A stretch of DNA of 64,000 nt from Leucothrix pacifica (lineage in GTDB: Bacteria; Pseudomonadota; Gammaproteobacteria; Thiotrichales; Thiotrichaceae), in NCBI RefSeq assembly GCF_003172875.1, contig NZ_QGKM01000046.1, forward strand, positions 1 to 64,000, in the 5' to 3' direction. Made by a program: the position numbers and the translations under genes. Numbering within the stretch: the stretch's first letter is position 1; the number at the start of each line of letters is the position of its first letter. The notes beneath the pieces are model-generated. The model was not told the DNA's origin. It did no database searches and was given only the letters and a program-made list of their open reading frames with translations. This document shows, piece after piece, positions 25,886-31,640 of this stretch.

Positions 25886-25935
25886 CTATTGTTCCAAACA
25901 TTGTTTCATTAATGGAACAAACTATGGAACAATAG
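25886..25935 (+). promoter_or_regulatory. complex palindrome upstream of the variant fic gene
   Basis: CTATTGTTCCA (25886-25896) and TGGAACAATAG (25925-25935) are perfect 11-bp outer arms. Inner TTGTTTCAT and ATGGAACAA form a second pair, giving four TGTTCCA-type half-sites. It ends five bases before the fic ATG and overlaps the place for a ribosome site, so it is probably an operator. A closely similar palindrome follows the gene at 27033-27078. Confidence 0.6.
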
Positions 25936-25939
25936 AGGC

Positions 25940-27028
25940 ATGCTAAGTACACGACAATCACAAATACTTGACTTATTTATCGATGAGCCGGACGAGGCGC
26001 TCAGCGCTGGCGACCTTCTTCCTCAGTTTGACATTGGAAGAACTAGCCTGTTCCGGGATCTTACAGCACTAACCGAGGCTGGCTTGATCGAGGCAAGTGA
26101 AGGCAGTACACGTTCACGTACATACCGCCTACATCCAAATTCAGATGAGTACATTCGATGGGATTTGTCTCGCCCACCGCAGCAACGCTATGAAGTCAAT
26201 TACCGTCCTGAGCTATTGATCAACTACCAACCAAACAAGAGCTACTTTCTGACTGAAGAACAACGGGAAGTAATGGCCGAGGCAGGATCAATTTCGGAAG
26301 ATCAAACACTTGAACAAGGCAGCAAAAACTATAACCGTCTCATTGCAAGCCTATTAATTGACTTGGCCCATGCATCCTCCAATCTGGAAAACGTTCCGAT
26401 CTCATGGCTGGATACCAAAACGCTTATCGAGTTTGGAGAACGCCCTGATGGCTTGAACGAAACCGAACTCAGAATCGTGTTGAATCACAAAAAGGCGATT
26501 ACTCATCTTACTGAAAATGCTCGTGAAATGAGTATTGATCCAAAGGATTTATTTGATCTGCATACTCTGATCGCAGATGGATTGATTCCTGAGAGCGCCG
26601 CTATTGGCCGCCTGAGACAGCGAGTTGTCCGGTTCTCAGACAGTCGTTATCTGCCACCTGATAATCCTCACTTATTGCGAGATGCGTTTGAGCTTTTTTG
26701 CGAAAAGGCAGACGCCATTAAAAATCCATATGAGCAAGCATTTTTTGCCATGTCTTTTTTACCGTACCTTCAGCCTTTTCAGGATGGTAACAAACGCACC
26801 TCCCGCTTGACGATGAACATCCCTCTGCTCAAGCATCAGCTGGCACCTTTTTCATTTTCAGACATCAAAAAACGAGATTATATGTTTGGTTTGCTGGCTT
26901 TTTATGAACGAGGTCAGCATCGATTTTTGGCGAATGCATTCGTTAAGTCTTACCAAAAAACAGCTCCTCGATATGCCGAGTTACTTGACTACGTTCAACA
27001 GGGCGGTGCTTTGGGGTCATTAACCTGA
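25940..27028 (+). CDS. Fic-family protein with N-terminal winged helix and altered active-site motif
   Basis: This 362-residue protein has a winged-helix-like domain at 1-65 (AGDLLPQFDIGRTSLFRDLT) and a Fic fold behind it. An inhibitory-helix-like motif SSNLEN is at 146-151. The Fic motif reads QPFQDGNKR at 278-286, so the catalytic histidine of HPFxxGNGR is Gln278. Classical Fic proteins transfer AMP or another nucleotide onto proteins using that histidine, so canonical AMPylation is doubtful. The gene is bracketed by two similar palindromes, and the winged helix is a candidate reader of them. The function is unknown. Confidence 0.8.
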   Translation: MLSTRQSQILDLFIDEPDEALSAGDLLPQFDIGRTSLFRDLTALTEAGLIEASEGSTRSRTYRLHPNSDEYIRWDLSRPPQQRYEVNYRPELLINYQPNKSYFLTEEQREVMAEAGSISEDQTLEQGSKNYNRLIASLLIDLAHASSNLENVPISWLDTKTLIEFGERPDGLNETELRIVLNHKKAITHLTENAREMSIDPKDLFDLHTLIADGLIPESAAIGRLRQRVVRFSDSRYLPPDNPHLLRDAFELFCEKADAIKNPYEQAFFAMSFLPYLQPFQDGNKRTSRLTMNIPLLKHQLAPFSFSDIKKRDYMFGLLAFYERGQHRFLANAFVKSYQKTAPRYAELLDYVQQGGALGSLT

Positions 27029-27032
27029 GCAT

Positions 27033-27078
27033 ATTGTTCCAAGGTTTGTTCCATCAGTGAAACAAACTTTGGAACAAT
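27033..27078 (+). promoter_or_regulatory. 46-bp near-perfect palindrome downstream of the variant fic gene
   Basis: The two 21-base halves (ATTGTTCCA, then GTTTGTTCCA, mirrored by TGAAACAAAC and TGGAACAAT) differ at two positions. It starts four bases after the fic stop. It lacks a T-run, so it is not an ordinary terminator. Its half-sites match those of the upstream palindrome. Confidence 0.6.
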
Positions 27079-30635: not shown

Positions 30636-30926
30636 TCATTTGAAGATGAAAAGAGTGATGCAACGAGCGCCAACACGCCGGATACTCAGCAGGCAGATAC
30701 CGCGAAAGCCGCTCAATCAAGCAAGCCGGAAGGTAAATTGACTTGGTCAAAGGTGTTGCAGGATCAGATTAAAGTGGTGCGGGAGCAATTGGCATTGTCG
30801 CCATTACCCGCCGATGCATTGACGGTGCAATTCAAGCGTAATCCGAAAGGGGTTCAGGATGTGCTGGATGCCTTGGTTGCACTGGGTATGGTGACTGAGG
30901 AAAGTGGCGAGTATCGCTTGGTGTGA
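30636..30926 (+). pseudogene. spliced relic: uma2 snippet joined to a methyltransferase-like C-terminus
   Basis: A 97-codon frame with no start. Bases 30636-30662 match the uma2 gene near 32294 (product SFEDEKSDA against SFEDDKSDV). From 30668 the sequence encodes a different tail (KLTWSKVLQDQIKVVREQLA ... VQDVLDALVALGMVTEESGEYRLV). This resembles the small winged-helix tails of class I DNA methyltransferases, though that assignment is tentative. The first 100 bases of the tail recur at 31780-31879. Another start (TTG 30738) would give 62 residues, but expression is doubtful. Confidence 0.5.
30668..30767 (+). repeat. 100-bp direct repeat, copy A
   Basis: This copy matches 31780-31879 with a single difference (T at 30747 against C). 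The two copies lie 1.1 kb apart and flank the MazE/PIN module. Copy A continues into a longer coding tail, while copy B is cut and joined to a fic fragment. Confidence 0.9.
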
Positions 30927-30951
30927 TGCAATAAATCTTTCTCTCGCAAGT

Positions 30952-30989
30952 GTGCCACTTTTGACTTACAATTGTGGCACGCCTATAAA
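30952..30989 (+). promoter_or_regulatory. promoter and operator of the MazE-like/PIN module
   Basis: TTGACT (30961-30966) and TATAAA (30984-30989) are 17 bases apart, a near-consensus promoter. Inverted arms GTGCCAC (30952-30958) and GTGGCAC (30974-30980) enclose the -35 element, so bound antitoxin would block polymerase. AGGAG at 30992-30996 serves ATG 31003. Confidence 0.75.
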
Positions 30990-31002
30990 AAAGGAGAGCA
31001 CC

Positions 31003-31254
31003 ATGGAAGCAATAGCACTTTCTGTCGGTAAGCAAGGAAGAATAGTTATCCCTGCTAATTTAAGACAACAGCTAGCGATTACAGCGGGATCTCATTTAAT
31101 AGCTTGGGTCGAAAACGGCCGTTTGATATTAGAAACAAAAAATCAACTTTGGCAGACGATACATGCCGCCTCTAATCATATTCCGCAAGATACTGATTTA
31201 GCCCAAGAGTTAATTGATGAGCGAAGAATTGCAGCAGCCAAGGAAAATCAATGA
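31003..31254 (+). CDS. AbrB/MazE-type antitoxin
   Basis: This 83-residue protein has a swapped-hairpin AbrB domain at the N-terminus (LSVGKQGRIVIPANLRQQLAI, then GSHLIAWVENGRLILE). A polar C-terminal tail (AQELIDERRIAAAKENQ) is suited to bind the PIN toxin. ATG 31003 is preceded by AGGAG at correct spacing; the long upstream extension of the frame is not credible. It overlaps the toxin by four bases (ATGA). It should bind the inverted repeat over the promoter and autorepress. Confidence 0.88.
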   Translation: MEAIALSVGKQGRIVIPANLRQQLAITAGSHLIAWVENGRLILETKNQLWQTIHAASNHIPQDTDLAQELIDERRIAAAKENQ

Positions 31255-31640
31255 GTGCTAAGTCGTATTTACTCGACGCCTCAGCATTGCTGGCAGCTAT
31301 TCATAACGAACTTGGTGGTGAACTCGTTCAACAGATAATCGAAGAGTCAGCTGTCAGTAGTGTTAATTGGTCGGAAGTCTTACAAAAACTGAATAGGGCC
31401 GGTGCAGACACACAAGCAATAACTGCGGCGTTAAAGGCGTTAGGGTTAGAGATTATTGTTTTTAATGAGGATGATGCAACTATCGCAGCAAGCTTGTGGC
31501 CTGAGACTAAATCACTTGGTTTGTCACTGGCAGACAGAGCCTGTTTGGCGACGGGAAGGCGTCTTAAGCTAACGGTGGTTACGGCTGATAAAGTTTGGCA
31601 ATCATTGGACGCTGAGCAAAAGATAAAACTCATTAGATAG
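31251..31640 (+). CDS. PIN-domain toxin (VapC-like ribonuclease)
   Basis: This 129-residue PIN protein has acidic residues at the expected places: LLDASALLAAIHNE at the start, NWSEVLQKL, then SLADRACLATGRRL and VVTADKVW. PIN toxins cut tRNA or rRNA in a metal-dependent way until neutralised by the antitoxin. It follows the AbrB-type antitoxin with a four-base overlap, the standard arrangement. The module is flanked by the two copies of the 100-bp repeat. Confidence 0.88.
   Translation: MSAKSYLLDASALLAAIHNELGGELVQQIIEESAVSSVNWSEVLQKLNRAGADTQAITAALKALGLEIIVFNEDDATIAASLWPETKSLGLSLADRACLATGRRLKLTVVTADKVWQSLDAEQKIKLIR

What the first reader, a model, noticed from the sequence alone, without database searches (positions are those of the whole stretch)
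25886..27078. A fic gene bracketed by two similar complex palindromes
The same arrangement, ATTGTTCCA outer arms with a second nested TTTGTTyCA pair, lies five bases before the ATG and again four bases after the stop of the variant fic gene. The downstream copy has near-perfect 21-base arms but no T-run, so it is not a normal terminator. The gene product itself starts with a winged helix that could bind the sites. A gene enclosed between two of its own operators could be looped, silenced from both ends, or move as a unit. I know of no described example.
Basis: partly seen in the sequence, partly recalled or inferred. Interest (0 to 1): 0.72.

Follow-up and report, generated by a model that had tools for sequence, protein, structure and literature searches.

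The report
Self-binding sites around fic-like regulator
A bacterial gene that joins a DNA-binding domain to a Fic domain lacking the usual catalytic histidine is preceded by a conserved four-part DNA site that is most likely its own off-switch; the matching site behind the gene is real but peculiar to this genome, and one more stray copy lies elsewhere in the same genome.

Summary
Both palindromes are 44-bp arrays of four 8-bp half-sites at a 12-bp period: TTGTTYCA-N4-TTGTTYCA-N4-TGRAACAA-N4-TGRAACAA. None is expected by chance.

The upstream array is very probably the auto-operator of the fic product. Six of six orthologues found (43-72% identity, Thiothrix to Azonexus) carry the same architecture 7-32 nt before their start codon. 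The half-sites are conserved while the N4 spacers pair only as chance predicts, so it reads as protein-binding DNA rather than an RNA stem. More distant N-terminal-HTH Fic genes often have their own, different inverted repeats at the same place. The closest known case is CccR of Yersinia, a Fic-HTH autorepressor with a 46-nt palindromic operator.

"Bracketed by two operators" is not general: none of the five other orthologues has a 3' copy. A third, 94% identical array lies between convergent genes elsewhere in this genome. Two relatives without the orthologue carry solitary arrays. The 3' copy is best read as a duplicated operator, possibly a roadblock or auxiliary site. Gene mobility has no support.

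The Fic active-site His is Gln throughout this subfamily, so classical AMPylation is doubtful.

The parts
25889..25932 (.). Upstream four-half-site array (putative auto-operator); full palindrome 25886-25935; half-sites at 25889, 25901, 25913, 25925
   Evidence: Same architecture 7-32 nt before the start codon in six of six orthologues.
25940..27028 (+). fic-like gene, 362 aa: N-terminal winged-helix-like domain plus Fic domain with the motif Q278-PFQDGNKRTSR (catalytic His replaced by Gln)
   Evidence: PF02661 43.7 bits (cut-off 24); HTH_11 and MarR_2 below cut-off.
25940..26161 (+). N-terminal winged-helix-like DNA-binding domain (residues about 1-74), recognition-helix region GRTSLFRDL
   Evidence: Weak Pfam HTH hits. 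R34, T35, L37, F38, R39, D40 invariant in 6 orthologues. Predicted helices 4-15, 23-30, 34-46 and strands 61-63, 71-73 in a low-confidence model.
26375..26392 (+). Class II-type inhibitory motif (S/T)xxxE(G/N): SSNLEN, residues 146-151
   Evidence: S146 and E150 invariant in five orthologues, position 151 N or G.
27034..27077 (.). Downstream four-half-site array, 5 nt after the stop, between convergent fic and the minus-strand phosphoribosyltransferase-like gene
   Evidence: Not present behind the other orthologues.

Best explanation
The fic product is a self-regulating DNA-binding protein. Its N-terminal winged helix recognises TTGTTYCA, and two dimers or a tetramer occupy the four evenly spaced half-sites of the 44-bp array just before the start codon, blocking transcription of fic (negative autoregulation). 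The Fic domain, with Gln in place of the catalytic His, more likely serves for dimerisation or nucleotide sensing than for AMPylation. The 3' copy is a secondary operator copy specific to this genome. If occupied, it could stop RNA polymerase at the gene's end (roadblock, as LacI at O3) or hold a loop with the upstream array 1145 bp away. Shown here: the sites, their conservation upstream, the domains and the residue change. Inferred: binding, repression, stoichiometry and any role of the 3' copy.
For: Array upstream of fic in this genome, Thiothrix-group G055, G095 and G096, Thiolinea disciformis and Azonexus hydrophilus, 7-32 nt before the ATG. In the family only 5 of 63 genomes have the orthologue and all five have the array; among 58 without it two have a solitary array. 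In 367 other genomes of the class one 3-mismatch hit only, none with 0-2. Half-sites conserved (outer pairs 95%, inner 81% complementary) while spacer pairing equals chance (20/40 against 18.7 in shuffles, P 0.35), and position 6 differs in step across the half-sites (C/T in this genome, mostly G in relatives). Of 18 scored loci of more distant Q-type Fic genes, seven have a significant inverted repeat ending 1-29 nt before the start, of different sequence; none has a clear second array downstream within the flanks held. Precedent: CccR (Fic-HTH) represses itself through AGATAATCAT-N26-ATGATAATCT (PMC9755527).
Against: No binding or expression data. No sigma-70 promoter was recognised around the array. 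HTH matches are below Pfam cut-offs and the structure model has mean pLDDT 62.6. Solitary arrays in two genomes without a recognisable orthologue (G009, G028) are not explained by autoregulation. The 3' copy is not conserved, so its function may be nil. G096 and Thiolinea arrays are imperfect.
Confidence: 0.75

Rival explanations
1. The palindromes are RNA hairpins: a 5' leader structure and a 3' mRNA-end structure or bidirectional terminator between convergent genes.
For: Stable folds, -24.8 to -28.0 kcal/mol, z about -7. The 3' copy lies between convergent genes, as do two of the three solitary arrays.
Against: No T-run. Spacer pairing at chance and inner half-sites broken as stems in G055, G095, G096 and Thiolinea while the half-site sequence persists. 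No Rfam match. A solitary array in G028 has no pairing spacers at all.
Confidence: 0.12
2. fic with its two arrays is, or was, a mobile cassette, and solitary arrays are scars left when fic was lost by recombination between flanking copies.
For: Gene neighbours differ between species and the orthologue is patchy (5 of 63 genomes). Solitary arrays exist in this genome and in two others. G012 keeps a C-terminal fic remnant of 47 aligned residues at 85% identity.
Against: No other orthologue is flanked on both sides; no recombinase next to fic; no target duplication seen; no array beside the G012 remnant; no matches in plasmids, phages or viral contigs. Flanks of solitary arrays show no similarity beyond about 50 bp, apart from one weak 64-column match, and no fic remnant.
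Confidence: 0.08
3. The arrays belong to another regulator or to a chromosome-organising protein of this bacterial family, and fic is only one of its targets.
For: Arrays occur in G009 and G028, which have no detectable orthologue or matching winged helix (G028 best E 0.07). The site at C109 is not at a promoter.
Against: All five fic orthologues in the family, and one in Azonexus outside it, carry the array; it is nearly absent elsewhere and only 1-3 copies occur per genome. The wider Fic family has other repeats at the same place.
Confidence: 0.12

Closest known systems
CccR of Yersinia pseudotuberculosis (PMC9755527)
   Same: Single protein with Fic and HTH domains, class II inhibitory motif, represses its own gene through a palindrome of similar length (46 nt) near the promoter.
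   Different: HTH at the C-terminus, intact catalytic His (H192), toxic AMPylation of FtsZ, two half-sites 26 bp apart rather than four at a 12-bp period; no second operator was seen in the passages read.
CbFic2 of Coxiella burnetii (PMC10628234)
   Same: Class II Fic with winged helix that binds DNA; DNA drives dimerisation.
   Different: C-terminal winged helix, active (de)AMPylase with HPFDDGNGR motif; no specific operator known.
LacI and operator O3 (PMC3711431)
   Same: Repressor gene with an operator for its own product at its far end; roadblock gives autoregulation. Proposed analogue for the 3' array.
   Different: O3 also serves the neighbouring lac operon; a different protein family; here no binding is shown.
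Lambda CI with OL and OR (PMC3708714)
   Same: Repressor gene between two multi-site operators of its own product; looping over 2.3 kb.
   Different: Phage operators with lytic promoters; HTH of another family; here the loop is hypothetical.

Membership tests
Fic AMP-transferases | Fic fold / Pfam PF02661 | tested here: met
   43.7 bits against cut-off 24; best fold matches are FICD and other Fic proteins although the model is weak.
Fic AMP-transferases | Active-site motif HxFx(D/E)GNxRxxR with catalytic His | tested here: not met
   QPFQDGNKRTSR; Gln in all five aligned orthologues and in the more distant relatives listed.
Class II Fic proteins | (S/T)xxxE(G/N) inhibitory motif N-terminal to the Fic motif | tested here: met
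   SSNLEN, residues 146-151.
CccR-type autoregulatory Fic-HTH proteins | DNA-binding domain plus palindromic operator at the own promoter | tested here: met
   By sequence only: six of six orthologues; binding not tested.
CccR-type autoregulatory Fic-HTH proteins | C-terminal HTH and catalytic toxicity | tested here: not met
   The HTH-like domain is N-terminal and the catalytic His is absent; toxicity itself not tested.
FicTA toxin-antitoxin modules | Small adjacent antitoxin gene | tested here: not met
   No such ORF beside fic: neighbours are a large FadB-like gene and a convergent phosphoribosyltransferase-like gene.
Intrinsic terminator | Stem followed by T-run | tested here: not met
Palindromic repeat / mobile element | Multiple copies, target duplication or recombinase | tested here: inconclusive
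   Three copies in this genome; no recombinase or clean empty site.

The most novel reading that the evidence does not exclude
The Fic-like regulator controls transcription ends as well as its own start: arrays placed between convergent genes (behind fic, at C109, in G009) act as regulated roadblocks or loop anchors for both strands, with the His-less Fic domain as the ligand or nucleotide sensor that sets occupancy.
Probability: 0.12. Interest if true: 0.7.

Novelty: new variant of a known kind. Interest (0 to 1): 0.42.

Why it matters
[quoted passage not shown] That suggests a Fic fold used as a transcription-factor module rather than as a toxin. The four-half-site array and its specific sequence make this directly testable, and the extra copies at gene ends offer a natural test of operator function away from promoters.

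Tried and rejected
Wrong spacing in a first pattern scan (4-4-3) gave no hits and was replaced by 4-4-4. Terminator reading rejected: no T-run. Rfam: nothing. Viral, phage and plasmid collections: no array. Empty-site test failed: the genus relatives keep the flanking genes in other surroundings, so no clean pre-insertion site exists in the genomes held. Structure prediction gave a low-confidence model (mean pLDDT 62.6) used only for helix order. The C109 copy was considered as a regulated promoter and rejected, since it lies at the 3' ends of two convergent genes.

Full report
Observation. The fic gene (25940-27028, +, 362 aa) is preceded by a palindrome at 25886-25935 and followed by one at 27033-27078. 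Written in register, both are the same object: four 8-bp half-sites TTGTTYCA at a 12-bp period, two forward and two reverse (44 bp). Both match TTGTTNCA-N4-TTGTTNCA-N4-TGNAACAA-N4-TGNAACAA with no mismatch; shuffles of the window give none even at three mismatches. In the whole 5.0-Mb assembly the pattern occurs three times, without a mismatch each time: before fic, behind fic, and on contig C109:14004-14047. The C109 copy is 47/50 identical to the upstream copy and lies between the 3' ends of two convergent genes with no fic nearby.

Conservation. Six orthologues were found: this one, G055 (68%), G095 (72%), G096 (gene altered), G022 = Thiolinea disciformis (43-44%) and Azonexus hydrophilus (57-59%). 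All six have the array, with half-site mostly TTGTTGCA outside this genome (ATGTTGCA in Azonexus), 7 to 32 nt before the start codon. The five others have no downstream copy. Of 63 genomes in the family, six match the array pattern within three mismatches; Thiolinea's array falls just outside it. Two of the six, G009 (perfect) and G028 (one mismatch), carry a solitary array and no orthologue or matching winged helix. In 369 genomes drawn from the class, only the own genome, G009 and one 3-mismatch hit appeared. So the upstream array goes with the gene, the 3' copy does not, and solitary arrays exist.

DNA site or RNA stem. Over ten arrays the outer half-sites are 95% and the inner 81% complementary, but the spacers pair no better than when dealt out at random (20/40 against 18.7, P 0.35). 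Conserved half-sites with free spacers of fixed length point to a protein read-out of DNA. The RNA folds are stable but need not be functional.

Protein. Pfam finds Fic (43.7 bits) and weak HTH families at residues 2-58. The AlphaFold model is of low confidence but orders the first elements as helix-helix-helix-strand-strand. The Fic motif reads QPFQDGNKRTSR: the catalytic His is Gln in every orthologue aligned and in the more distant relatives listed (QAFIDVNKRTSR and similar). The inhibitory motif SSNLEN is kept. Loss of the His argues against classical AMPylation; that the domain then acts as a sensor or dimeriser is inference.

Wider family. Seven of 18 scored loci of more distant Q-type Fic genes have a significant inverted repeat ending 1-29 nt before the start (for example AAAAGTGTCGTAAT-N17-ATTACGACACTTTT in G009), each with its own sequence. 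Others show direct repeats such as TGGCGGATA. These tests used simple base shuffles and loci that are partly close relatives of each other, so the number is a guide. Autoregulation from an upstream array may thus be common in this group.

Mechanism. Most likely the protein binds its upstream array and represses itself, as CccR does through a 46-nt palindrome (PMC9755527). For the 3' copy two precedents exist: a roadblock as LacI at O3 (PMC3711431) and looping as CI between OR and OL (PMC3708714). Neither was tested here. A mobile cassette is unsupported: the flanking genes in G003 and G006 lie in other surroundings and give no clean empty site, and phage, plasmid and viral collections hold no copy.

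Verdict. A real, well-conserved auto-operator in front of an unusual His-less Fic regulator; an extra 3' copy peculiar to this genome; and a small set of solitary copies that remain unexplained.

Noticed in passing
L040:5005-5048 (own genome, C109:14004-14047): Third perfect copy of the array, between convergent dehydrogenase-like and YkgJ-like (cysteine-rich) genes, far from any fic.
   Followed up: partly
L061:6189-6232 (G009) and L063:3844-3887 (G028): Solitary arrays in two family members that lack the fic orthologue; the G009 copy is a perfect palindrome next to a PIN-type toxin-antitoxin pair.
   Followed up: partly
L044:1577-2800 (G096): The fic orthologue carries an in-frame run of about a dozen Gly-Ala-Ile repeats inside the Fic domain and diverges near its 3' end; possibly a decaying gene or an assembly fault.
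   Followed up: no
L022:1498-1674 (G012): Remnant of the C-terminal part of the same fic gene (47 aligned residues, 85% identity) without an array nearby.
   Followed up: partly
L086, L087, L098, L102: Distant Q-type Fic genes of Thiothrix-group genomes have three to six copies of TGGCGGATA-like repeats overlapping their start region.
   Followed up: partly
window 30904-31640: AbrB-like and PIN-domain-like gene pair, probably a VapBC-type toxin-antitoxin module.
   Followed up: no
window 16921: Another inverted repeat of 21-4-21 geometry (16 of 21 pairs), the only one besides the two arrays in the window.
   Followed up: no
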